From Lentzea albida (GTDB taxonomy: Bacteria > Actinomycetota > Actinomycetes > Mycobacteriales > Pseudonocardiaceae), in contig NZ_FOFV01000008.1 in NCBI RefSeq assembly GCF_900111005.1, positions 1 through 64,000 of the forward strand: 64,000 nt of DNA. The letters run 5' to 3'. The translations under genes were made by a program, and so were the position numbers. The number at the start of each line of letters is the position of its first letter. Positions within the stretch are counted from its first letter, which is position 1. A model generated the notes under the pieces. The model saw only the letters and a list, made by a program, of their open reading frames with translations. It did no database searches and was not told the DNA's origin. Positions 592 to 54,197 of this stretch are shown in pieces.

Positions 592-804
592 TGTGGACAA
601 CTGGGGGACAACCTGTGGATGGTTGCTCACAGGGATCGCGACGCTGGGGACAACCTGTTGACAACCGGTGGAGTGACGGAAGTAACCCCAGATCAGAGGC
701 TGTGCACAAGTTGTGGAAGAAGTTGTGCGCCACACCCTCGGCGTGTCGCGGAAAACACCCTCTTCGGCGTGTCGCGCATGCGCCGAGCGTTGGATTTATC
801 CACA
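592..804. promoter_or_regulatory. Cluster of DnaA-box-like sites upstream of dnaB
   Basis: Two exact DnaA boxes are visible: TGTGGACAA at 592-600 and TTATCCACA at 796-804. One-mismatch copies are TGGGGACAA (645-653), TGTTGACAA (656-664) and TGTGCACAA (701-709). Weaker copies are at 614-622 and 712-720. The consensus TT(A/G)TCCACA is established for bacterial DnaA. Seven candidates in ~210 bp between replication-fork genes suggest DnaA binding, either to control dnaB or to titrate DnaA. This is inference; the classical oriC lies at dnaA-dnaN in actinobacteria. Confidence 0.55.
732..776. repeat. Direct repeat pair upstream of dnaB
   Basis: ACACCCTCGGCGTGTCGCG at 732-750 is repeated at 755-776 with only an inserted TTC after ACACCCTC. 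The two copies lie between DnaA-box-like sites and are 4 nt apart. Function is unknown; a protein-binding repeat or a small duplication are both possible. Confidence 0.6.
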
Positions 805-43786: not shown

Positions 43787-45603
43787 GCAACCTCTCGCAG
43801 ACAGTCCGGCAGACGCGCGAGCGCCTCACCTCTCTCGTGCGCGAGCTGGACCCGTCGATGGCCGACTGGGTGACGAGGAGCGCGACGCCCGAGGTGTCGT
43901 CGGTCGTGATCGTCGGCGAGACGAACCGCGGCAAGTCGTCGCTGGTCAACGCCCTGCTGGCCACCCCGGGCCTGTCCCCGGTGGACGCGGACGTCGCCAC
44001 CTCGACGTACCTCGTCTTCCAGCACGGCCCGTCGTGGGCGGCGCGCGCCTGCTACCCCGGCCTCCTGGCACCCGTCTCGTTCCCGCTGCCCGCGTTGATC
44101 AACTGGGTCTCCGCCGCCCACGACCTGCCCGAGGGCGAACTCCCCCCGCGCTACGTCGAGGTCGACGCCCCGATCCCGTTGCTGGAACGGATGTCCGTCG
44201 TGGACACCCCCGGCGTGGGCGGCCTGGAGTCGGTGCACGGCGAACTGGCCCTGGAGGCCGTCACCTCGGCGACCGCCCTGGTCTTCGTGGTCGACGCCTC
44301 GTCCCCCTTCACCCGCGGCGAGCTGGACTTCCTGAAGCGCGTCGGCGACCGCGTCGAAACCGTCGCCTTCGCCCTCACCAAGACCGACCAGTACCGCGGC
44401 TGGCGCCAGGTCCTCGACGCGAACCGGGCCCTGCTCGCCGAGCACGCCCCCCGCTTCGCCGACGCCACCTGGTACCCGGTCTCCTCGCGCATGTTCGGCA
44501 TGGCCGCCCAGGCCCCGAACCCGGACGCCGCCTCGATGCTGCGCGAACGCTCCGGCATCTCCGCGCTGCAGACCTCGTTGCAGGAACTGGTCACCGGCCG
44601 GGCCGGCATGCTCGCCGAGGCCAACGCCCTCCGCGCACTCACCACAGTCCTGGCAGAACTCGTAGTACGCCTGGAGCACGAGAAGCGCGCTCTCTCCGTG
44701 GGCGAAGACGAAGCCGCAGTGCTCCGCGCCCGCCGCGAAGAACTCCAGACCGAACGCCGTTCCTCGACCCGGGGCTGGCAGGTCCGCCTGCGCGGCGAGG
44801 TCCAACGCGCCCGCATCGAGAACTCGCACGAGATCTCCCGCCAGATGCGCGACCTGCAGACCTGGTACCGCCAGGCCATCGACGCGGCCGACCGCACGGC
44901 CCTGGCGGCGCTACCGGGCCAGGTCGACACGGCCCTGCAGGTCGTCTCCAGCCGGATCTCCACAGCCCTGTCCGTCCGCCTGTCCCAGGTGACCGACGCC
45001 GTGCTGGCCACGTTGTTCTCGCCCGAGGAACTCACCCTGATCCGCGGCCAGTTCGCCCGAGGCAAGCACCCGCCGGTCGTGTTGCGCCCCAAGGAGAAGC
45101 GCCCGCCGACGGCCGAGGACAAGCTGCTGGTGTTCATGGGCGTCTCGGGCGGCCTGGGCGCGGGCAAGCTCGCCGTCATGCCACTCGCCGGCCTCGGCAT
45201 AGCGGTCCTGAACCCGATCGTCCTGCCCGTCACGATCGCCCTGGGCCTGGGCGCCGGCTGGTGGATGGCCCGCACCCGCACCCACACCGCGGAGAAGCAG
45301 CACGTCAAGCAGTGGCTCTCCGACGCCATCGCCGACGCCCGCTCCACTGTGGACCAACTGGCCGCCGAGCAGCTGATCGAGGCGGAGCAGGCCCTGTCGC
45401 TGGCGTTGGACGAGGCCCTGGCCAAGCGCATCGAGGCCATCGAGGCGGAGCTGCGGGAGGTCGACCGGGCGTTGCGGATGGAGGCCGGGGAGCGGGGGCG
45501 CGAGCTGCAGGCCGCCACCCGTCAGCTGGCCGAGGTGGAGTCGGGGCTGTCGAAGGCCGAGGAGCTGCTGGGCCGGATCAGGTCCGTGCGCGACCGGGCT
45601 TAG
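43783..45603 (+). CDS. Dynamin-like GTPase with membrane hairpin, last of operon
   Basis: A 606-residue GTPase. G1 is GETNRGKSS (45-53), G3 DTPGVGG (141-147) and G4 TKTD (199-202). Helical stalk regions flank a hydrophobic double segment at about 446-495 (MGVSGGLGAGKLAVMPL and IVLPVTIALGLGAGWWM) like the paddle or transmembrane anchor of DynA/IniA-type proteins. The C-terminus is a coiled coil (residues 510-600). ATGA overlap with the GrpE-like gene. With the first dynamin it likely forms a heteromeric membrane machine for remodelling or stress protection. Confidence 0.86.
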   Translation: MSNLSQTVRQTRERLTSLVRELDPSMADWVTRSATPEVSSVVIVGETNRGKSSLVNALLATPGLSPVDADVATSTYLVFQHGPSWAARACYPGLLAPVSFPLPALINWVSAAHDLPEGELPPRYVEVDAPIPLLERMSVVDTPGVGGLESVHGELALEAVTSATALVFVVDASSPFTRGELDFLKRVGDRVETVAFALTKTDQYRGWRQVLDANRALLAEHAPRFADATWYPVSSRMFGMAAQAPNPDAASMLRERSGISALQTSLQELVTGRAGMLAEANALRALTTVLAELVVRLEHEKRALSVGEDEAAVLRARREELQTERRSSTRGWQVRLRGEVQRARIENSHEISRQMRDLQTWYRQAIDAADRTALAALPGQVDTALQVVSSRISTALSVRLSQVTDAVLATLFSPEELTLIRGQFARGKHPPVVLRPKEKRPPTAEDKLLVFMGVSGGLGAGKLAVMPLAGLGIAVLNPIVLPVTIALGLGAGWWMARTRTHTAEKQHVKQWLSDAIADARSTVDQLAAEQLIEAEQALSLALDEALAKRIEAIEAELREVDRALRMEAGERGRELQAATRQLAEVESGLSKAEELLGRIRSVRDRA

Positions 45604-45875
45604 GCGCAGTAGGCGGGATCCAGCGGCTTCAGTCTGATCTGCTGCCGGTCGTCGAACCAGACGACCTCGAACGTGGTGACCGTGCCGACCTGCGGCCACC
45701 GCTCCACCTCGCGCGGGAGGCGGAGCACGTCGACGAAACCCCCGAAGGGGAGCCCGAGGTCGACGAACACACCGATCGCACCTGGCCGGGGCACGAGCAC
45801 CACGGTGCCGGTGAACCGCTGCCCGAGCTCCAGATGCGCGCTGAACCGCTCCCACCTCTGCTGGTCCTCGTCCAC
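45600..45875 (-). CDS. Small S1-like RNA-binding-fold protein
   Basis: A 91-residue protein resembling an S1/OB domain (FTGTVVLVPRPGAIGVFVDLGLPFGGFVDV). I place the start at GTG 45875; the frame is open to 46043 and ATG 45917 or 45929 are alternatives, but those added residues are not S1-like. It overlaps the stop of the second dynamin gene by 4 bp (converging) and is divergent from the acidic protein gene. Function unknown. Confidence 0.65.
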   Translation of the reverse strand: MDEDQQRWERFSAHLELGQRFTGTVVLVPRPGAIGVFVDLGLPFGGFVDVLRLPREVERWPQVGTVTTFEVVWFDDRQQIRLKPLDPAYCA

Positions 45876-45963
45876 CCCGGGACCGTAGCGAGGTTGGCGG
45901 CGGAACCAAACCGGCATAACGTGGGTCATACCGGTACATGAGCAGGTATGGAGGTGTGTCCCG

Positions 45964-46650
45964 GTGTACATCGACGAGAACGGTGCGGCCGACGCCGAGC
46001 TGAAGGTGACCGTCGAGGACGAGGAGTACACCGCCGACGTCACCTTCGACCTCGACCAGGACGGCGTGAACGACTCCGCCGTCGTCGAGACCGATGACGG
46101 CGGTCATCTCGCGTTCACCGACACGAACGGCGACGGCGACGCCGATCTGATGAGCACGTTCGACAAGGACGGCAATCTCCTGAGCCAGGCGCGGTTCGAG
46201 GAGAATTCCGGTGAGTGGGTGGCCGTCGACCCGAACGACTCGCAGCACGAAAAGACGAATTCGACTTCCAAACAGGCGATTGTCGTGGAGACCGACGACG
46301 GGGAGCGAAACGTCGGCCCGGCCACCGAGGACACCGACGGGGACGGCAAGGCCGACACCGTTGTCGTCCGCGACGACGACGGCGACACGTGGTTGTTCAC
46401 CGACAAGAACGGCGACGGCAAGGCCGACGTGGCGACCGAGATCACGCGGTCCGGCGAGGTCACGATGTCGGAACACCGAGGTGACGACTGGGTGGAGGTC
46501 GAGCACGGCCACATCGAGTCCGACGGCCGGTACGTGACCGACTCGAAGAGCGGCATTCTGGACGACTCGGACGAGTGGCTCGAGGAAGAACGCTTCGACG
46601 GCGTCGTCCGAATCGATTCCACAACGGGGCAGTGGATCAGCCCGAACTGA
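45964..46650 (+). CDS. Acidic protein with DxDxDG-type calcium-binding-like repeats
   Basis: A 228-residue, very acidic protein without signal peptide or membrane segment. At least four DxNxDG/DxDxDG loops occur (DLDQDGVND, DTNGDGDAD, DTDGDGKAD, DKNGDGKAD), spaced in two groups, each followed by a short beta strand pattern. These resemble thrombospondin type 3/dockerin calcium loops; the arrangement is like actinobacterial DUF6802 proteins. GTG 45964 has GGAGG 8 nt upstream. Role unknown. A strong terminator follows the stop. Confidence 0.8.
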   Translation: MYIDENGAADAELKVTVEDEEYTADVTFDLDQDGVNDSAVVETDDGGHLAFTDTNGDGDADLMSTFDKDGNLLSQARFEENSGEWVAVDPNDSQHEKTNSTSKQAIVVETDDGERNVGPATEDTDGDGKADTVVVRDDDGDTWLFTDKNGDGKADVATEITRSGEVTMSEHRGDDWVEVEHGHIESDGRYVTDSKSGILDDSDEWLEEERFDGVVRIDSTTGQWISPN

Positions 46651-46961
46651 ACCGTTAACTGAAGCGCAGGTCACAGGCCTCGGTGTGGTGAGAACCGCAC
46701 CGGGGCCTCTTGTGTTTTTCCCACCGCCACGGGGGCTTAACGCCGTCCGAGTGCTGAATCGATTCCAGAATCGGTTTTGTGAGGGAAGCGACAGGCTGGG
46801 GGTGCTTTACCTGCCATTCACCGGGCTAACCTCGGTCCATCCCCTTCCACGCACGCCCGGCCCCACCGGGCGTCTGGAGCTATTCCCGAGGACGACGAAG
46901 TCCTGCACCGGACCACCACGTGCTCGGGTTGCCGAGGCGTTCAGTCAGGAGACGAGACGAG
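46651..46961. other. 311-bp interval between acidic protein gene and pckG
   Basis: The first part holds the terminator at 46675-46719. The remainder (about 46720-46961) must contain the pckG promoter and leader. I see no further gene; the sequence is less GC-rich around 46741-46800 (GATTCCAGAATCGGTTTTG, an inverted-repeat-like GATTCC/GAATC pair near 46759-46772). Confidence 0.6.
46675..46719 (+). terminator. Intrinsic terminator after acidic protein gene
   Basis: AGGCCTCGGTGTGG-type left arm (from 46675) pairs with the right arm ending GGGGCCT at 46708, with G-T pairs, and is followed by CTTGTGTTTTT, the clearest T-run among terminators here. Confidence 0.85.
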
Positions 46962-48773
46962 ATGACGGCAGTGACCATTCCCGGTCTCGAACAGGCACCT
47001 ACCAACCACGCGCGCTTGCTCGCATGGGTTCAGGAAGTCGCTGAGCTGACCTGCCCCGACGAGGTTGTTTGGGCCGACGGGTCCCAGGGCGAATGGGACC
47101 GCCTCACCAAGAAGCTCGTGGACGCCGGCACGTTCGTGCCGCTCAAGAAGAAGCAGAACTCGTTCTGGGCCGCCTCGGACCCCAGCGACGTGGCCAGGGT
47201 CGAGGAGCGCACGTACATCTGTTCGGTGCGCGAGGAGGACTCGGGCGCGACGAACAACTGGATGGACCCTTCCGAGATGAAGGCCATCATGACCGAGCTC
47301 TACCGGGGCTGCATGCGTGGCCGCACGATGTACGTCATCCCGTTCTGCATGGGCCCGCTCGACGCGGAGAAGCCCATGCTCGGTGTGGAGATCACCGACT
47401 CGGAGTACGTCGTCGTCTCCATGCACATCATGACCCGCATGGGCACCAAGGCCCTCGCGGTCTTCGGTGACGACGCGGACTTCGTGCCCGCCCTGCACTC
47501 CCTCGGCGCCCCGCTCGAGCCCGGCCAGGAGGACGTGCAGTGGCCGTGCAACGAGACCAAGTACATCTCGCACTTCCCGGAGACCCGCGAGATCTGGAGC
47601 TTCGGCTCCGGCTACGGCGGCAACGCCCTGCTCGGCAAGAAGTGCTACTCGCTGCGCATCGCGTCCGTGATGGCGCGCGACGAGGGCTGGCTCGCCGAGC
47701 ACATGCTGATCCTCAAGCTCACCTCGCCGGAGAACAAGGCGTACTACATCGCCGCCGCGTTCCCGTCGGCCTGCGGCAAGACCAACCTGGCCATGCTGGA
47801 GCCGACGATCCCCGGCTGGAAGGTCGAGACGCTCGGCGACGACATCGCCTGGATGCGCTTCGGTGAGGACGGCCGCCTCTACGCGGTGAACCCGGAGAAC
47901 GGCTTCTTCGGCGTCGCGCCCGGCACCGACTACCACACCAACCCGAACGCGATGCGCACCATCGCCAAGGGCAACTCGCTGTTCACGAACGTCGCGCTGA
48001 CCGACGACGGCGACATCTGGTGGGAGGGCATGGGCGAGCCCCCGGCCCACCTCACCTCGTGGAAGCACCAGGACTGGACGCCGGACAGCGAGGAGCTCTC
48101 CTCGCACCCGAACTCCCGTTACTGCACGCCGATCGAGCAGTGCGACATCAAGGCGCCGGAGTGGGACGACCCGAAGGGCGTGCCGATCAGCGCGATCTTC
48201 TTCGGTGGCCGCCGCGCCACGACGATCCCGCTGGTCACCGAGTCGCGCGACTGGCAGCACGGCACCTACATGGGCGCCACGCTGTCGTCGGAGACCACGG
48301 CCGCCGCGGTCGGCAAGACCGGTGTCGTGCGCCGCGACCCGATGGCGATGCTGCCGTTCATCGGCTACAACGCCGGCGACTACTTCCAGCACTGGGTCGA
48401 CCTCGGCAAGCGCGCCGACGCCGACAAGCTGCCGAAGATCTTCTACGTCAACTGGTTCCGCCGCGGCGAGGACAAGCGCTTCCTGTGGCCCGGGTTCGGC
48501 GAGAACTCGCGCGTGCTGAAGTGGGCCATCGAGCGCCTCGAGGGCAAGGCCGCCGCGCAGGAGACGCCGATCGGGTACGTGCCGACCGCCGACGACCTGG
48601 ACCTCGAGGGCCTGGACGCGTCGCGTGAGGACATCGAGGCATCGCTGGCGTTCGACGCCGACGAGTGGCGTGCCGAGATCCCGCTGGTCGAGGAGTGGTT
48701 CGCCAAGATCGGCGAGAAGGTCCCCACCACGCTCCGCGACGAGCTGGCCGCCCTGAAGCAGCGCCTGGGCTAG
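46962..48773 (+). CDS. pckG: Phosphoenolpyruvate carboxykinase (GTP)
   Basis: Interconverts oxaloacetate + GTP and phosphoenolpyruvate + GDP + CO2 in gluconeogenesis. The 603-residue product is the normal length. It shows the P-loop-like kinase-1 motif PSACGKTN (near 268-275, with the reactive Cys of GTP-type enzymes), metal-binding blocks [12 protein letters not shown] and the catalytic-lid region [12 protein letters not shown] 46962 is chosen with AGGAGA upstream; the frame continues open 42 bp upstream, which is not conserved-looking. A terminator follows. Together with the SSS organic-acid transporter nearby it fits growth on organic acids. Confidence 0.97.
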
Positions 48774-48791
48774 TTCCCGGGTGTTCGCAGG

Positions 48792-48823
48792 AGCCCCATC
48801 GGTCAACGGCGACCGGTGGGGCT
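48792..48823 (+). terminator. Terminator after pckG
   Basis: AGCCCCATCGGTC (48792-48804) pairs with GACCGGTGGGGCT (48811-48823), one G-T pair, 6-nt loop, followed by TCTTCTT. Confidence 0.85.
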
Positions 48824-48847
48824 TCTTCTTGGGGTACTACTAGTCGT

Positions 48848-49060
48848 GTGAAGCAGGACGACTTTCTCGGCGGGCTGAACTACGACGGTTCGACGCGCGA
48901 TGTGGAGGTCGGCCCGACGACGGGCATCGTGCGCTACTACCCGGTGCCGCCACCCGCCGAGCCGCCCCGCACGCCGTGGTGGCGCTACATGCTCGTGTTC
49001 GTCGTCGGTTGGGCGATCGGCGTGGTGGCCGGTGTGGTCCTGTGCAGCAATTTTCTCTGA
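48848..49060 (+). CDS. Small single-pass membrane protein (70 residues)
   Basis: Soluble N-terminus (starts MKQDDFLGGLNYD; contains VEVGPTTGIVRYYPVPPP, a Pro-rich linker) and one C-terminal membrane helix (MLVFVVGWAIGVVAGVVLC). GTG 48848; the ribosome binding site is weak. It is 25 bp after the pckG terminator, so it needs its own promoter or leaderless start. No family recognised; composition is protein-like. Confidence 0.6.
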   Translation: MKQDDFLGGLNYDGSTRDVEVGPTTGIVRYYPVPPPAEPPRTPWWRYMLVFVVGWAIGVVAGVVLCSNFL

Positions 49061-49093
49061 ATCAGCGCAGCTCATCGTCCACTTGGGACGAAG

Positions 49094-49146
49094 TTGTCCA
49101 CACCTGTGGACGGGGTTGTGCACATGTTGTGGATAGCTGTGGACAA
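49094..49146. promoter_or_regulatory. Dense, helically phased DnaA-box cluster
   Basis: Five DnaA-box-like 9-mers occupy 53 bp. They are TTGTCCACA (49094, exact), TGTGGACGG (49105, two mismatches), TTGTGCACA (49116, one mismatch), TGTGGATAG (49128, one mismatch) and TGTGGACAA (49138, exact). Starts are 10-12 bp apart, i.e. one helical turn, so all would face the same side of the DNA. It lies in non-coding sequence after the small membrane protein gene. Function (DnaA titration, regulatory or initiation-related) is unproven. Confidence 0.65.
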
Positions 49147-49226
49147 GCCTGGGGACTTCTCCATAGGTCGTGAAAACGGTCTTGCACCAGGAATGAACCT
49201 GGCCCCTTCCGGGAACGTCTTAGGTA

Positions 49227-49242
49227 TGTGATGGCGGTCACA
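49227..49242. promoter_or_regulatory. CRP-like operator TGTGATGGCGGTCACA
   Basis: Perfect TGTGA-N6-TCACA palindrome differing from the site at 26838 in one spacer base. It lies 36 bp before a small candidate membrane ORF and between it and the DnaA-box cluster. A cAMP-CRP family regulator is the likely binder, by consensus only. Confidence 0.65.
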
Positions 49243-49277
49243 AAGATCGTCAACCGAGACGGAAAGGGAGGTGTGCC

Positions 49278-49442
49278 GTGGGTGTCGCGGGAATTGCGAT
49301 GTTGGTGCTGTCCCTGGCCGCCGTGCTGATGGTCGTGATCGCCGGGTCAGTTCGGGAGCGGGTTGTCCCGGATGCCGAGGAGGGTCCCGTTGAAGGCCTT
49401 GGTGGCCTCCGCGTAGCAGACGGCGTTGGTCCAACCCTCTGA
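49278..49442 (+). CDS. Small membrane protein (54 residues), partly antisense to next gene
   Basis: GTG 49278 follows AGGGAGG by 6 nt, a very strong translation signal, and lies just after a CRP-like site. The N-terminus is a membrane helix (GIAMLVLSLAAVLMVVIAG) followed by a charged tail. The last 96 bp run antisense through the 3' end of the septum-formation gene. The strong signals argue that it is real; the overlap and lack of a family argue caution. Confidence 0.45.
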   Translation: MGVAGIAMLVLSLAAVLMVVIAGSVRERVVPDAEEGPVEGLGGLRVADGVGPTL

Positions 49443-50189
49443 CCAGGCCTGCGAGCCGGGGTTGCGCCACGCGGGGAACACGTCCGTGCGCTTGCTCGAC
49501 CCCAGGTAGTCGTGCACGGCCTTGGTGCACTTCTCGTTCGCGATGGAGTTCATCTGCTCCTTGGACGGAGCGGGGTCGGACGACTTGCCGAGCGACACGA
49601 CACCGGCGGGCACGGCCTCGGCCAGGTGCGCGGTGTTGCACGCGACGACCTTGACCTCCTGGTCCTTCGACGGCGAGCCCTGGGTGCAGGTCTGGAACGT
49701 GCTGAAGCCGTTGCCCTTCAGGATCTCCTTGACGGAACCCTTGCGCGCCAGCGGCTTCTCGTCCGGGCTGATCTCCACGACGGTGCACAGGCGCCAGCGC
49801 TGGCCGTCCTTCCAGCCCTGCTCGTTCGGCCAGAACGCCCAGACCCGCAGGCGCGTCGAGTCCGCGTCGCCGCTGCCCAGGTACTCGCTGAGCGTCTGGC
49901 GGCACGGCGGCAGCGCGGCCTTGCGGAGCACCTGCGTGTCCGGGTAGGCCGACGGCAGGCCGGTCATCTCACCGACGCTCATGACCTCGGCCTCGTGCGA
50001 GTCGGTGCACTGCAGCACCTTCAGCTCGTAGGCGTTCATGCACTGCCCCGCTTTCGGCAGCGTGGGCGCGGAGGCGGAGGCCGTGGACGGCATCGGTCCG
50101 GGGACCGCCTGCCCTCCCACCTGGATCGCGCACGCGGACAGCGTCACCGCGCTCAGGACAATTGCCACCGCCAGCCGCACACGAGTCAC
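49347..50189 (-). CDS. Septum-formation-family lipoprotein
   Basis: A 280-residue predicted lipoprotein (lipobox LSAC, C20). It has the two-repeat septum-formation-like domain: AGQCMNAYELKVLQCTDSHEAEVM and, later, FSTFQTCTQGSPSKDQEVKVVACNTAHLAEAV, each with paired cysteines and a conserved His/Glu. Related proteins are found in actinobacterial envelopes. Start GTG 50189 overlaps the C15-like gene stop by 4 bp (GTGA), so they form an operon. Confidence 0.85.
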   Translation of the reverse strand: MTRVRLAVAIVLSAVTLSACAIQVGGQAVPGPMPSTASASAPTLPKAGQCMNAYELKVLQCTDSHEAEVMSVGEMTGLPSAYPDTQVLRKAALPPCRQTLSEYLGSGDADSTRLRVWAFWPNEQGWKDGQRWRLCTVVEISPDEKPLARKGSVKEILKGNGFSTFQTCTQGSPSKDQEVKVVACNTAHLAEAVPAGVVSLGKSSDPAPSKEQMNSIANEKCTKAVHDYLGSSKRTDVFPAWRNPGSQAWSEGWTNAVCYAEATKAFNGTLLGIRDNPLPN

Positions 50190-51433
50190 ACCACAGAGAC
50201 TAGGGCCTTCACTTGATCGGCGATGTCCCGACGCTGCTTTTCGAACGCGGCGTCGGTCAGCGCGGCCGGGTCGGCGGGCTGCCCGAGCACCGGCGTGTGG
50301 AGGTGTCCGCCGAGGACGTTCGTTGCGCCGTAACCGATCCGCAGCCTGTTGGCCCGGTACATGCTCTCGTTGGAGAGGTAGTCACCGCCGCCGCCGGACG
50401 CCGCGACCCTGCCCGGAGTCGGCTGGTCCGTGCGGCACGACTGCTGCGAGCCGACGACGACCCACTCGCAGAAGGCCAGGTTGTGGTTCACGGCGAACGG
50501 GCCCGTGCCGGCGTCGATCATCTTCTGGAACGGCAGCGAGGTCTCGATGAACTCGTCCGTCGGCTGCGGCCAGCCCGGAGCGTTCGGGACGCTACCGTAG
50601 GAGCCGACGTTGTTGTTGTCCGCGAAGCCACCGCGCCAGCGCGCCGCCCACCGCTCGACGTCGAAGCGGCCGGGCCTGCCCTGGCTGATCGTCACGAACG
50701 CGTCGGGCTTCTGCTGCAGCGCCGTTCCGTAGAACTGCTCGACGACACCCTCGTCGAACGCGCCCCACAGCACCGGGAGCACCGCGGCCTGCAGCACGAC
50801 CTTGCCGGTGGGCGTGTCGATCTCACGACCGTCGAGCTGCAACGCCGCCGCACCGGCCGGGTTCGCGCGCCGCACGTTCACGCCGGTCAGCTGGAACGGG
50901 TCGAAGCCGGTGACCGCGATCTTGCGCACGCCGGGCTTCGCGGGGAACTTGGTGTCGCTCAGACCGCGGGACGCCCAGTCGAACTTCTGGATGAGCGTCG
51001 CGCGGTCGTGGGGTGACAGGGTGAAGCGCGGCTTCCACTGGCGCAGCGCGGAACTGAGCTGCAGCCGTGCCCAGTAGAGCGGGCGGTCGTCATAGGTGTC
51101 GTGCGCCTGAGGTGTTGTGCTCTGCGCACGGGCGACGGCCGCCTTCCACAGCGCGTTGCCCTCTCGTTCGACGAACTGCTGCGCCTGCCTCGGCAGGACC
51201 TGGCGGCAGAGTTTCGCGGTGAAGTCCGCGACGCGGCCGTCGAACCCGGCCAGCTTCACGAGCGACGGGCCGACGGCGGGACCGCCGACGACGAGCACGT
51301 CGTCGAGCCGCTGCTCCTCGACGGTCAGTGCGGCGGTGGTGTCGTAGCAGTCGGCGTCCTGCGCGTGCGCGACGGCAGGGCTCAGGGTGACGGCGAGAGC
51401 GGTCAGTCCGACCAGTCCGGCGATGGTTTTCAC
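50186..51433 (-). CDS. Secreted pyroglutamyl-peptidase (C15)-like protein, catalytic Cys not conserved
   Basis: A 415-residue exported protein. The signal peptide (IAGLVGLTALAVTLSPAVAHA) ends near residue 24. The second half resembles peptidase C15: ITGFDPF-type VTGFDPFQLTGVNVRRANP, the Glu block QGRPGRFDVERWA, and HLHTP near the C15 His position (GGHLHTPVL). But where C15 has the nucleophile in a VCNHxFY context, this has FAVNHNLAF, so the Cys is Val; another Cys is 5 residues on (FCEW). The first ~180 residues have no known family. It may be an inactive or altered-chemistry member. It follows the SSS gene and a terminator by 71 bp. Confidence 0.72.
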   Translation of the reverse strand: MKTIAGLVGLTALAVTLSPAVAHAQDADCYDTTAALTVEEQRLDDVLVVGGPAVGPSLVKLAGFDGRVADFTAKLCRQVLPRQAQQFVEREGNALWKAAVARAQSTTPQAHDTYDDRPLYWARLQLSSALRQWKPRFTLSPHDRATLIQKFDWASRGLSDTKFPAKPGVRKIAVTGFDPFQLTGVNVRRANPAGAAALQLDGREIDTPTGKVVLQAAVLPVLWGAFDEGVVEQFYGTALQQKPDAFVTISQGRPGRFDVERWAARWRGGFADNNNVGSYGSVPNAPGWPQPTDEFIETSLPFQKMIDAGTGPFAVNHNLAFCEWVVVGSQQSCRTDQPTPGRVAASGGGGDYLSNESMYRANRLRIGYGATNVLGGHLHTPVLGQPADPAALTDAAFEKQRRDIADQVKALVSVV

Positions 51434-51454
51434 GTAGACGATCCTCGACGCAAA

Positions 51455-51484
51455 GGGCCACCCGCCGTAACCGACGGGTGGCCC
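51455..51484 (-). terminator. Terminator after SSS symporter gene
   Basis: GGGCCACCCG (51455-51464) pairs with CGGGTGGCCC (51475-51484), 10-nt loop; on the minus strand it is followed by TTTGCG. It lies between the symporter stop and the C15-like gene. Confidence 0.8.
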
Positions 51485-51504
51485 ATAGTGTTGCCGACTG
51501 CGTC

Positions 51505-53139
51505 TCAGTGCGCTGCCACGGGCTTGACCCGCGGGTTGTCCTCGTCGACGTGGTAGTCCGACGGGTCGGTGTGGTCGACACCGTTGGGGGACTTGGCCTT
51601 CTTCGCGATCAGCGTGACGATCACCGCGACGACCAGGTTGACCAGCAACGCGACGATGCCGACGTAGATCTGCGTCGTCGAGGCGCCGAACGGGTGCCAT
51701 CCGAAGATCGAGATGTTGCCGAGCGGCAGCGCGGAACCGGCGAAGTGCGCCTTGCCCACGGCCGGGTTGCCGATGTTGTAGAGCAGCCACATGCCGTAGC
51801 CCATGCCCGCGACCCAACCGGCGATCAGGCCGTACACGTGGAACCAGCGCGTGTAGAGCGCGATCGCGACCGCCGGGAGCGTCTGCAGGATCATGACGCC
51901 ACCGATGAGCTGCAGGTCGATGGAGAACTGCGGGTCGACGAACACGATGAACGCGACGGCGCCGAACTTCACCACCAGGGAGGCGAGCTTGGCCTGCTTG
52001 GCCTCCTCCGCCGGGGTGGCGTCCTTCTTCACGTACTCCTTGTAGACGTTGCGCGTCCACAGGTTCGCCGCCGCGATGGACATGATCGCCGCCGGCACCA
52101 GCGCGCCGATGCCGATGGCCGCGAACGCGATGCCCGCGAACCACGACGGGAAGTTCGCGCCGAAGAGCTCCGGGACGATCGTGTTGGTGTCGGGACGGCC
52201 GGTCGCCTGGTTGACGATCGGCTTGGTGCCCGCGCTGATCGCCACGAAACCGAGCAGCGCCAGCAGACCCAGCAGCAGCGAGTACGCCGGGAGCGCGACC
52301 ATGTTGCGCTTGATGACGTTGCGGCCGCGGCTCGCGAGGATGCCGGTCAGCGAGTGCGGGTAGAGGAACAGCGCCAGGGCGGACCCGAGGGCCAGCGTCG
52401 CGTACTGCAGCTGGTTCGTGCCGGTCAGCAGGATGCCGTCGGCCTTGCTCGGCGTCGCGTCGAACTTGGCCTGCGCGTCGTTGAAGATCTCGCCCCAGCC
52501 GCCGAACTTCGAGGGCAGGTAGATGATCGCGACCAGGATCACCAGGTAGATCAGGATGTCCTTGACGAACGCGATCAGCGCAGGCGCCCGCAGGCCCGAC
52601 TGGTAGGTGTAGAGCGCGAGGATCAGGAAGGCGATGAACAGCGGCAGGTGGCCGAGGATGCCGGAACCGTTGAGGCCCATGGACCGCAGCACCGCTTCGA
52701 GGCCGACGAGCTGCAGCGCGATGTACGGCATGGTCGCGACGATTCCGGTGACCGCGATGATCAGCGCCAGCCAGTGCGAGCCGTAGCGGCCCTTCACGAA
52801 GTCGGCGGGCGTGACGTAGCCGTGCACGCGGCTGACCGACCACATGCGCACCAGCGGCAGGAACACCAGCGGGTATAGGATGATCGTGTACGGCAGGGCG
52901 TAGAAGCCGAGCGCGCCCGCGCCGAACATCAGCGCCGGCACCGCGACGAAGGTGTAGGCGGTGTAGAGGTCACCGCCGACCAGGAACCACGTGATCCAAC
53001 TGCCGAACTTGCGGCCGCCCAGACCCCACTCGTCGAGGTGGTCGAGCGTTTCGCCCTTCTGCCACCGCGCGGCCACGAAGCCCATGACCGTGACGAGCAG
53101 GAAGAGGGCGCTGAAAACGATCAGCTCGGTCCACTGCAT
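51505..53139 (-). CDS. Sodium:solute symporter (SSS family), organic-acid transporter like MctC
   Basis: A 544-residue membrane carrier with 13 or so helices. The start MQWTELIVFSALFLLVTVMGFVAARW and blocks EWGLGGRKFGSWITWFLVGGDLYTAYTFVAVPALMF and YATLALGSALALFLYPHSLTGIL are typical of the SSS group that includes corynebacterial MctC, a monocarboxylate (acetate, propionate, pyruvate) transporter. The exact substrate is not shown. Start ATG 53139 overlaps the stop of the DUF3311 gene by one base, the usual SSS-DUF3311 pairing. It probably works with gluconeogenic pckG nearby. Confidence 0.93.
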   Translation of the reverse strand: MQWTELIVFSALFLLVTVMGFVAARWQKGETLDHLDEWGLGGRKFGSWITWFLVGGDLYTAYTFVAVPALMFGAGALGFYALPYTIILYPLVFLPLVRMWSVSRVHGYVTPADFVKGRYGSHWLALIIAVTGIVATMPYIALQLVGLEAVLRSMGLNGSGILGHLPLFIAFLILALYTYQSGLRAPALIAFVKDILIYLVILVAIIYLPSKFGGWGEIFNDAQAKFDATPSKADGILLTGTNQLQYATLALGSALALFLYPHSLTGILASRGRNVIKRNMVALPAYSLLLGLLALLGFVAISAGTKPIVNQATGRPDTNTIVPELFGANFPSWFAGIAFAAIGIGALVPAAIMSIAAANLWTRNVYKEYVKKDATPAEEAKQAKLASLVVKFGAVAFIVFVDPQFSIDLQLIGGVMILQTLPAVAIALYTRWFHVYGLIAGWVAGMGYGMWLLYNIGNPAVGKAHFAGSALPLGNISIFGWHPFGASTTQIYVGIVALLVNLVVAVIVTLIAKKAKSPNGVDHTDPSDYHVDEDNPRVKPVAAH

Positions 53140-53405
53140 CAGTTCGCTCCCTCGTCCAGGTCGTCAACGCCGAGCTTGTCTGGCTTGCCGGTGACCACGG
53201 GCTCGTCCTTGGTCTTGACGTAGACGATCCCGACGCACGCGACGCCGAGCGGGACGAACAGGAACTGGTACCAGTAGAAGAACGGCAGCCCGAAGATCCG
53301 GGGCTCGTCGAAGTTGAACCACGGCGTGATGAGCATGAACAACGGGAGTATCAGCAGCAGGTTCCAGTTGCTCCAGCGCAAGCCGGTCTTGTGGTCCGAC
53401 GGCAT
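53139..53405 (-). CDS. DUF3311 small membrane partner of the symporter
   Basis: An 88-residue protein with two hydrophobic segments (NLLLILPLFMLITPWFNF and YQFLFVPLGVACVGIVYVK). DUF3311 proteins are commonly encoded just before SSS symporters. One-base overlap with the symporter start. Its function in transport is unproven. Confidence 0.9.
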   Translation of the reverse strand: MPSDHKTGLRWSNWNLLLILPLFMLITPWFNFDEPRIFGLPFFYWYQFLFVPLGVACVGIVYVKTKDEPVVTGKPDKLGVDDLDEGAN

Positions 53406-53510
53406 GGTGGCCCTCCGTGTACGCGATGTTGCGCGGATGTTAGGCCTGATGAAGTGTGGCGTCAGCCTAGAGATTGCAATCGTTGTCTTCGGCTTAACGT
53501 TCTCTTTGGA

Positions 53511-54197
53511 CTAATCCGCCGACAGACGGCTGGCGAGGTCTCGTTCGGCGGCGTCGAAGTACTCGTCGAGCTGCAGAACCGCCTGTTCCACTGTCCCGTT
53601 GTTCAACAATTCCACAATCCTGCGATTCCACGGCAGGTACGTCTGGTGGAAGGCGTCCATCTCGCGGGCGACGCGGAACGCGAGCATGAGCTCGGCGAAG
53701 AGCCGGTCGGACTCGTCGCTGAGCCGCGCGCTGCCCGCGAGGCCGACGATGCCGCGGTGGAACTGGATGTTGGCGGTGCCGGTCTTGCTGAAGTCGTTCT
53801 TCTCGGCCCTGGCCACGGCCTGGCGGACCGGTGCCCGCACGGCCTCCCGCCGGGCCTCGGTGACGTCGTTCCACAGGCGGAGGGCACCGCACTCGATCGC
53901 GCGGCGGGCGGCGTAGAGGTCCCGGACGTCGTCGCTGGTCGGGCGGCGGACGAAGACGCCGCGGCTGTGCTCGTGCACCAGGATCCGGTCGCGGGTGAGC
54001 AGCCGGAACGCCTCGCGCAGCGTGTTGCGGCTGACGCCGAGCGCGCCGCCGATCGCTTCCTCGCTCAGCCGCAGGCCCGGTTCCAGCTCACCGTCGAGCA
54101 CCCGCTCCCGCAGCATGTCGGCGACCTTCTGCGCGGTGCTGGCGCGCTCCAGGTCGGCCTTGCCCTGAGCCAGCGTCGACACCCACGTCTCGGTCAC
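53511..54197 (-). CDS. GntR-family regulator with FCD domain
   Basis: A 228-residue repressor. N-terminal winged helix (TAQKVADMLRERVLDGELEPGLRL-type region, here by its motif EAIGGALGVSRNTLREAF) and a C-terminal FCD ligand domain with the acidic/His metal-site pattern (HRGIVGLAGS). It is divergent from pxpA and 105 bp upstream of the DUF3311-SSS genes on its own strand, so it may control either or both. A 21-bp palindrome lies in the shared promoter region. Confidence 0.92.
   Translation of the reverse strand: MTETWVSTLAQGKADLERASTAQKVADMLRERVLDGELEPGLRLSEEAIGGALGVSRNTLREAFRLLTRDRILVHEHSRGVFVRRPTSDDVRDLYAARRAIECGALRLWNDVTEARREAVRAPVRQAVARAEKNDFSKTGTANIQFHRGIVGLAGSARLSDESDRLFAELMLAFRVAREMDAFHQTYLPWNRRIVELLNNGTVEQAVLQLDEYFDAAERDLASRLSAD

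What the first reader, a model, noticed from the sequence alone, without database searches (positions are those of the whole stretch)
49094..49146. Five DnaA-box-like sites in phase with the helix
Box starts at 49094, 49105, 49116, 49128 and 49138 are one helical turn apart, with two exact consensus copies at the ends. Such dense, phased arrays are features of origins or DnaA-reservoir sites (datA/DARS-like). Together with the dnaB cluster, two DnaA loci lie about 48 kb apart near the presumed origin.
Basis: partly seen in the sequence, partly recalled or inferred. Interest (0 to 1): 0.7.

Follow-up and report, generated by a model that had tools for sequence, protein, structure and literature searches.

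The report
Conserved DnaA-box array near replication origin
A short stretch packed with likely binding sites for DnaA, the protein that starts chromosome copying, is kept almost letter for letter in many related soil bacteria at a similar distance from the copying start, so it is probably a control site that helps set how often copying starts.

Summary
The five boxes are real: 49094(+), 49105(-), 49116(+), 49128(-), 49138(-), both end copies exact TTGTCCACA. None of 600 Markov-simulated windows had more than three boxes in 53 bp. All five are kept in 22 of 24 genomes of the genus (Lentzea) beside the same gene. A related core lies at the orthologous locus in 15 of 32 more distant family genomes; 2 have a rearranged cluster and 15 none nearby. 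Over 14 such loci identity is 0.60-0.98 inside boxes and about 0.3 in flanks. Wherever array and dnaA shared a long contig (8 genomes) it lies 79-148 kb from dnaA, on the dnaA-upstream side. Neighbouring genes differ between lineages, so it is not one gene's operator, and it is not an origin. Orientation resembles the E. coli DARS core (II-III step of 12 identical, I-II 11-12 instead of 14); place resembles datA and DnaA-box clusters. Best reading: a conserved origin-proximal DnaA-binding control locus, most likely a sink limiting re-initiation. DnaA binding and direction of effect are untested.

The parts
49094..49102 (+). DnaA box 1, exact TTGTCCACA
   Evidence: exact in 24 of 24 genus genomes
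49105..49113 (-). DnaA box 2, CCGTCCACA, facing box 1
   Evidence: at most 2 mismatches in 23 of 24
49116..49124 (+). DnaA box 3, TTGTGCACA, near-palindromic (also readable on - at 49117-49125); most conserved part in the family
   Evidence: 0.98 mean pairwise identity over 14 family loci; at most 2 mismatches in 23 of 24 genus genomes, 3 mismatches in G010
49128..49136 (-). DnaA box 4, CTATCCACA
   Evidence: at most 2 mismatches in 24 of 24
49138..49146 (-). DnaA box 5, exact TTGTCCACA here and in 6 other genus genomes, usually CTGTCCACA in the rest; outside the genus seen in a few of the 14 loci (L082, L084, L086, L106)
49075..49083 (+). weak outer box TCGTCCACT, 19 bp before box 1
   Evidence: at most 2 mismatches in 12 of 24
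49157..49165 (+). weak outer box TTCTCCATA, 19 bp after the start of box 5
   Evidence: at most 2 mismatches in 9 of 24
46920..48773 (+). PEPCK (GTP) gene, left neighbour
   Evidence: Pfam PF00821, PF17297
48848..49060 (+). small ORF 1, 70 aa, conserved in the genus; ends 33 bp before box 1
   Evidence: (read in 23 of 24 loci; the script missed L065)
49190..49277 (+). promoter-like block, visible in the alignment in 23 of 24 genus loci (degenerate in G019, absent in G018), here with a perfect CRP-like palindrome TGTGATGGCGGTCACA at 49227-49242; calling it ECF/CRP-like is recalled, not tested
49278..49442 (+). small ORF 2, 54 aa, overlaps the Septum_form gene antisense; found in 23 of 24 genus loci, absent in G018 although the array stays
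49347..50189 (-). Septum_form gene, convergent right neighbour, used as synteny anchor
   Evidence: Pfam PF13845

Best explanation
The array is a cis-acting DnaA-binding control locus outside the origin. Shown: the boxes match the high-affinity actinobacterial DnaA box, their order and spacing are conserved as an island, and the place relative to dnaA is conserved while the flanking genes vary. Inferred: DnaA binds cooperatively, with box 1 facing box 2 and boxes 2-5 readable in one direction; being near oriC, the array doubles soon after initiation and then holds or inactivates DnaA, which lowers the chance of an early second initiation. This is the job proposed for datA and for DnaA-box clusters in Streptomyces and Bacillus. 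Probability that it is a real DnaA-binding control element: about 0.9; that its net effect is negative (sink or inactivation): about 0.5.
For: Boxes match TTGTCCACA, listed as the high-affinity box of M. tuberculosis and S. coelicolor in PMC4285127 Table 1 (passage). Five boxes in 53 bp is beyond 600 simulations. Five boxes in 22 of 24 genus genomes. Identity 0.78, 0.84, 0.98 and 0.60 in boxes 1-4 against 0.27-0.32 in flanks over 14 family loci. The core pattern occurs in 95 stretches of named genomes; of the 80 with titles shown, 68 are from genera I place in Pseudonocardiaceae (placement recalled), and 62 of those 68 have PEPCK or Septum_form in the same stretch. Distance to dnaA 79-148 kb on the same side in the 8 genomes measurable. 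Right neighbours differ: small ORF 2/Septum_form, Septum_form directly, an alpha/beta hydrolase, a DUF3311-like/symporter pair, a HAD-like gene. The array carries exact boxes while the stretch between dnaA and the next gene has none. Two reviews state that DnaA-box clusters of B. subtilis and S. coelicolor repress untimely initiation (passages).
Against: No DnaA binding data. 15 of 32 family genomes with the Septum_form relative have no recognisable array near it; the model finds only weak hits (21-29 bits) elsewhere in 13 of those 15 and none in 2, so the family can do without it. Distance to dnaA follows from conserved gene order and is not independent evidence. In L106 and L111 the array lies 25-28 bp from the start of a small HTH gene, so promoter control is possible there. 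Head-to-head boxes are called characteristic of DARS, which activates DnaA. One review reports early initiation that was strong only when six B. subtilis clusters were removed together, and says clusters with significant roles have not been identified there (PMC5295017 passages).
Confidence: 0.5

Rival explanations
1. DARS-like activating site: DnaA bound head-to-head on boxes 1 and 2 and stabilised by box 3 releases ADP, so ADP-DnaA is recycled to ATP-DnaA.
For: E. coli DARS1 and DARS2 cores read +,-,- at starts 0,14,26; the array read as +,-,-,- has starts 0,11-12,23-24, so the orientation order and the 12-bp II-III step are the same. Reviews call the head-to-head I-II pair functionally essential and characteristic of DARS (passages). 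The densest box group between the genome's dnaA and the next gene is mostly in one direction.
Against: The I-II step is 11-12, not 14, about a quarter turn off, and DARS spacing is stated to be the same in DARS1 and DARS2. DARS1 and DARS2 map at 17.5 and 64 min, far from oriC (about 84 min, recalled); this array is near dnaA. Box 3 is near-palindromic, so its direction is ambiguous.
Confidence: 0.2
2. Operator: DnaA bound here regulates a neighbouring gene (small ORF 2 in Lentzea, a small HTH gene in some relatives).
For: Small ORF 2 follows the array in 23 of 24 genus loci and in several other family loci (for example L092, L093, L097, L108, L111). In L106 and L111 the array lies 25-28 bp from the start of a small HTH gene (Pfam run on L106 only).
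Against: G018 keeps all five boxes but has a HAD-like gene (by motif, recalled) instead of the promoter block and small ORF 2. In L082, L084, L086, L103, L104 and L106 the end of a convergent gene follows and no small ORF 2 match was found (tblastn to E 1). No single neighbour is shared by all loci examined.
Confidence: 0.2
3. Bidirectional terminator hairpin between convergent genes; the resemblance to DnaA boxes is incidental.
For: Strong hairpins in three relatives folded (RNA z -4.3, -4.4, -5.0 in L103, L082, L108) and a weaker one in the window (z -2.5 on +, -1.6 on -). Convergent neighbours in 38 of 95 stretches by crude ORF calls. Some spacer pairs show compensatory combinations.
Against: Inverted boxes fold by themselves. 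Complementarity of the spacers, the part not fixed by the boxes, is not above shuffles: 15 of 35 genus-level combinations fully paired against 12.3 expected, 18% of shuffles as high (59 of 84 rows used, the 25 with 2-nt spacers left out). Lentzea has mostly unequal spacers (2 against 3 nt) while the boxes stay. No terminator-like site was found in 48700-49500 by the U-tract scan, which would miss terminators without a U tract.
Confidence: 0.06
4. A chance cluster or passive relic.
For: About half of the family genomes with the anchor gene lack it.
Against: Simulation and island-like conservation over many genera.
Confidence: 0.02

Closest known systems
DnaA-box clusters outside oriC in Bacillus subtilis and Streptomyces coelicolor
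   Same: Groups of DnaA boxes outside but near the origin; reviews state that they repress untimely initiation (passages; the B. subtilis paper's title, seen in the reference list, says oriC-proximal).
   Different: The Streptomyces original is not held and the Bacillus original was not opened, so no sequence comparison was made. No function is shown here.
datA of E. coli
   Same: Non-coding locus with several DnaA boxes and conserved distance from oriC (PMC4585315).
   Different: datA depends on boxes 2 and 3 and an IHF site with set spacing; in the MG1655 stretch I took as datA (by position, recalled) the boxes found are spread over about 250 bp, while this array is packed in 53 bp and I identified no IHF-type site.
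DARS1/DARS2 core of E. coli
   Same: One box facing two boxes of the opposite direction; II-III step of 12 bp.
   Different: I-II step 14 bp in both DARS, 11-12 bp here; extra boxes 4 and 5 here; close to dnaA here. The MG1655 stretches were taken as DARS1/2 by position (recalled) plus the three-box core.

Membership tests
DnaA-box cluster outside oriC | several close matches to the local high-affinity DnaA box, more than chance | tested here: met
   consensus from PMC4285127
DnaA-box cluster outside oriC | lies outside oriC but near it | tested here: met
   79-148 kb from dnaA in the 8 genomes measurable; in the window genome dnaA is on another contig, so its own distance is unknown
DnaA-box cluster outside oriC | binds DnaA and affects initiation | not testable with these tools
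   needs wet-lab work
datA | boxes 2 and 3 and an IHF site with set spacing | tested here: inconclusive
   box layout differs from the MG1655 stretch; no search for IHF-type sites was made
datA | promotes ATP hydrolysis by DnaA | not testable with these tools
   biochemistry
DARS | box I opposite to boxes II and III | tested here: met
   +,-,- reading at 49094, 49105, 49117; box 3 readable both ways
DARS | spacing as in DARS1 and DARS2 (starts 0,14,26) | tested here: not met
   0,11,23 in Lentzea and 0,12,24 in the other loci
DARS | releases ADP from DnaA | not testable with these tools
   biochemistry
replication origin | AT-rich unwinding element beside the boxes, next to dnaA | tested here: not met
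   GC 0.52-0.58, below the window mean but no AT-rich stretch; dnaA elsewhere

The most novel reading that the evidence does not exclude
An actinobacterial DnaA-reactivation (DARS-like) or combined sink-and-reactivation site with its own geometry, one of several phased arrays strung along the dnaA-upstream side of the chromosome (at about 124 and 411 kb from dnaA in G010), which together set initiation timing in bacteria for which I recall no Hda or SeqA.
Probability: 0.17. Interest if true: 0.75.

Novelty: new member of a known kind. Interest (0 to 1): 0.55.

Why it matters
How actinobacteria limit initiation to once per round is poorly understood (my general knowledge). A 53-bp element with fixed architecture, conserved over many genera and independent of its neighbours, is a clean target for deletion and DnaA-ATP/ADP assays, and would show whether origin-proximal DnaA control loci of this group work as in E. 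coli.

Tried and rejected
Family pattern search: my pattern had one N too few and missed even the window, so its zero hits in 249 genomes mean nothing. Rfam: no family at gathering threshold in 45000-54000. Promoter/terminator scan of 48700-49500: nothing. Hairpin covariation: not above shuffles. Operator of small ORF 2: rejected as the general function because the array persists without it. Origin: rejected. DARS2 was first sought on the wrong side of mutH and not found, then between rppH and mutH. First DNA alignment had a coordinate slip for L082 and was redone. Model R1 was built from 23 sequences, 9 of them from the genus, so high scores for its 23 source genomes are by construction. That I know of no paper on this locus rests only on listings for 'DnaA box'+'Pseudonocardiaceae' (3 papers) and 'Lentzea'+'DnaA' (6 papers, 5 listed), none relevant by title; papers outside the held library were not searched.

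Full report
Observation. The window contains at 49094-49146 the sequence TTGTCCACA-cc-TGTGGACGG-gg-TTGTGCACA-tgt-TGTGGATAG-c-TGTGGACAA, i.e. five DnaA-box-like sites at the stated starts with orientations +,-,+,-,-. Both ends are exact TTGTCCACA, the high-affinity box listed for M. tuberculosis and S. coelicolor (PMC4285127 Table 1, passage seen). Steps are 11, 11, 12 and 10 bp. None of 600 Markov simulations of the window (300 of order 1, 300 of order 3) had more than three non-overlapping boxes within 53 bp; they use the window's mean composition, which is richer in GC than the spot. The helical phasing is approximate and partly forced by packing.

Where it is. The window is bases 1-64000 of contig C23 of a 9.44-Mb, 40-contig genome. 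Left neighbours are the PEPCK gene (46920-48773) and a 70-aa small ORF (48848-49060). To the right are a conserved promoter-like block, a 54-aa small ORF (49278-49442) and the convergent Septum_form gene (49347-50189). dnaA lies on contig C12, so the distance in this genome is unknown.

Conservation in the genus. The Septum_form gene was found in 24 of 24 genus genomes, the window's included, with a box cluster beside it in each. Five boxes with at most two mismatches stand at the window's offsets in 22, four in G010, and three in the diverged G019, for which I shifted the offsets by one. Box 1 is exact in 24 of 24; the last box is exact in 7 of 24 and mostly CTGTCCACA in the rest.

Conservation in the family. 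In a sample of 70 family genomes 65 had some match; 32 outside the genus had a near-full-length Septum_form relative (E 1.1e-42 or better), and I fetched about 4 kb beside all 32. The core (+ box, - box, TGTGCACA, - box) was found in 14, with poorer boxes in some (TGTGTACA in L106; weak box 4 in L085 and L092); in G031 about 6 kb from the gene, outside the stretch; and as a rearranged cluster in G055 and G088. The other 15 had none nearby; in 13 of them the model found only weak hits (21-29 bits) elsewhere, in 2 none. Over the 14, mean pairwise identity is 0.78, 0.84, 0.98 and 0.60 in boxes 1-4, 0.51-0.63 in the spacers and 0.27-0.32 in flanks. These 14 were recognised by loose box matching, which inflates box identity somewhat. 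A sequence model (R1) gave at least 37 bits in 12 of the 18 other same-family genomes listed in an order sample of 150, one of which (G043) was in the model; outside the family only G276 and G280 reached that in the listed part, neither near PEPCK or Septum_form. In the window genome the array scores 52.4 bits and the next hit 23.7. A scan of named genomes found the core pattern in 95 stretches, 80 shown with titles. 68 of the 80 are from genera I place in Pseudonocardiaceae (recalled); 62 of these 68 carry PEPCK or Septum_form in the same stretch, as do 10 of the 15 others. The remaining 12 titled ones are six Kocuria, Zafaria, two Pseudomonas, Tabrizicola, an unclassified MAG and one 'Rhodococcus rhodnii' record. 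This scan required most of the core by design, so it shows spread, not degree of conservation.

Position. dnaA was located in 11 genomes (G010, ten). Eight of these have an array on the same long contig; in G076 and G078 none was found near the gene, and G034 was not examined for it. In the eight the distance is 123.7 (G010), 122.5 (G085), 147.7 (G105), 113.7 (G043), 111.9 (G080), 101.5 (G049), 91.3 (G036) and 78.8 kb (G066), always on the side upstream of dnaA (positions; arithmetic; circularity assumed for G043, G080, G036 and G066). Gene order here is conserved, so this is not independent of synteny.

Not one gene's operator. G018 keeps the five boxes but has a HAD-like gene (by motif, recalled) where the promoter block and small ORF 2 should be. 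In L082, L084 and L086 the end of Septum_form follows the array, in L103, L104 and L106 the end of an alpha/beta hydrolase gene (Pfam on L106), in L117 a DUF3311-like/symporter pair (by likeness to window genes). In other loci small ORF 2 does follow (for example L092, L093, L097, L108, L111), and in L106 and L111 the other side abuts a small HTH gene, so local promoter effects remain possible.

Not an origin, not clearly a hairpin. GC is 0.52-0.58 over the array and its immediate flanks, below the window mean of 0.69 but without an AT-rich stretch. Three relatives fold into strong hairpins (z -4.3 to -5.0) and the window less so (z -2.5 and -1.6), but inverted boxes fold by themselves; spacer complementarity is not above shuffles (15 of 35 combinations fully paired, 12.3 expected), and most Lentzea lost the symmetry while keeping the boxes.

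Mechanism. E. coli DARS1 and DARS2 cores, read from MG1655 with the same kind of scan, have starts 0(+),14(-),26(-) (reviews confirm the opposite box I and the equal spacing). The array read as 0(+),11-12(-),23-24(-),34-35(-) shares the order and the 12-bp II-III step but not the I-II step. Its place near dnaA fits the datA and DnaA-box-cluster role instead. The stretch between the genome's own dnaA and the next gene has no exact box, so the array may bind DnaA more tightly than the origin (inference). I favour an origin-proximal DnaA sink or inactivation site (0.5) over a DARS-like site (0.2) and an operator (0.2).

A second array. At C23:330213-330254 of the same genome four boxes stand at exact 11-bp steps (+,-,+,-) with exact ends. 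Both ends are exact in 23 of 24 genus genomes and all four boxes have at most two mismatches in 21 of 24. It lies in a 60-bp gap between an aminotransferase gene and a sigma-factor gene, as called by longest ORFs. In G010 it lies about 411 kb from dnaA. So the window array belongs to a small set of conserved arrays.

Literature seen: passages only of PMC4585315, PMC3411110 (reference list only), PMC5742627, PMC10380432, PMC4285127 and PMC5295017; search listings otherwise. The Streptomyces original (PMC1595370) is not held.

Noticed in passing
G000:C23:330213-330254 (outside the window; L041, L262-L285): Second phased DnaA-box array (+,-,+,- at exact 11-bp steps), both ends exact in 23 of 24 genus genomes, in a 60-bp gap before a sigma-factor gene.
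   Followed up: partly
window 592-804: Loose cluster of DnaA boxes beside rplI at the contig's left end; a cluster near rplI also occurs in a genome of another family (L131).
   Followed up: partly
G000:C22:200759-200857 and C16:167979-168033: DnaA-box clusters directly beside sequences that look like actinobacterial SOS boxes (TCGAAC..GTTCGA, recalled), hinting at joint DnaA/LexA control.
   Followed up: no
window 49190-49442: Conserved promoter-like block with a perfect CRP-type palindrome before a 54-aa hydrophobic small ORF that overlaps the Septum_form gene antisense.
   Followed up: partly
window 48848-49060: Conserved 70-aa small ORF with a hydrophobic C-terminal half between PEPCK and the array, its start close behind a TACTACT element.
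   Followed up: no
L132, L136 (family f15): Related DnaA-box array upstream of a clpC-like gene (name recalled) in another family of the order.
   Followed up: no
L205 against L145: A record titled Rhodococcus rhodnii carries an array and PEPCK/Septum_form context matching Kibdelosporangium aridum; probably a mislabelled assembly.
   Followed up: no
Kocuria loci L159, L163, L164, L193, L198, L200: Same core pattern in six Kocuria records without PEPCK or Septum_form in the stretch.
   Followed up: no
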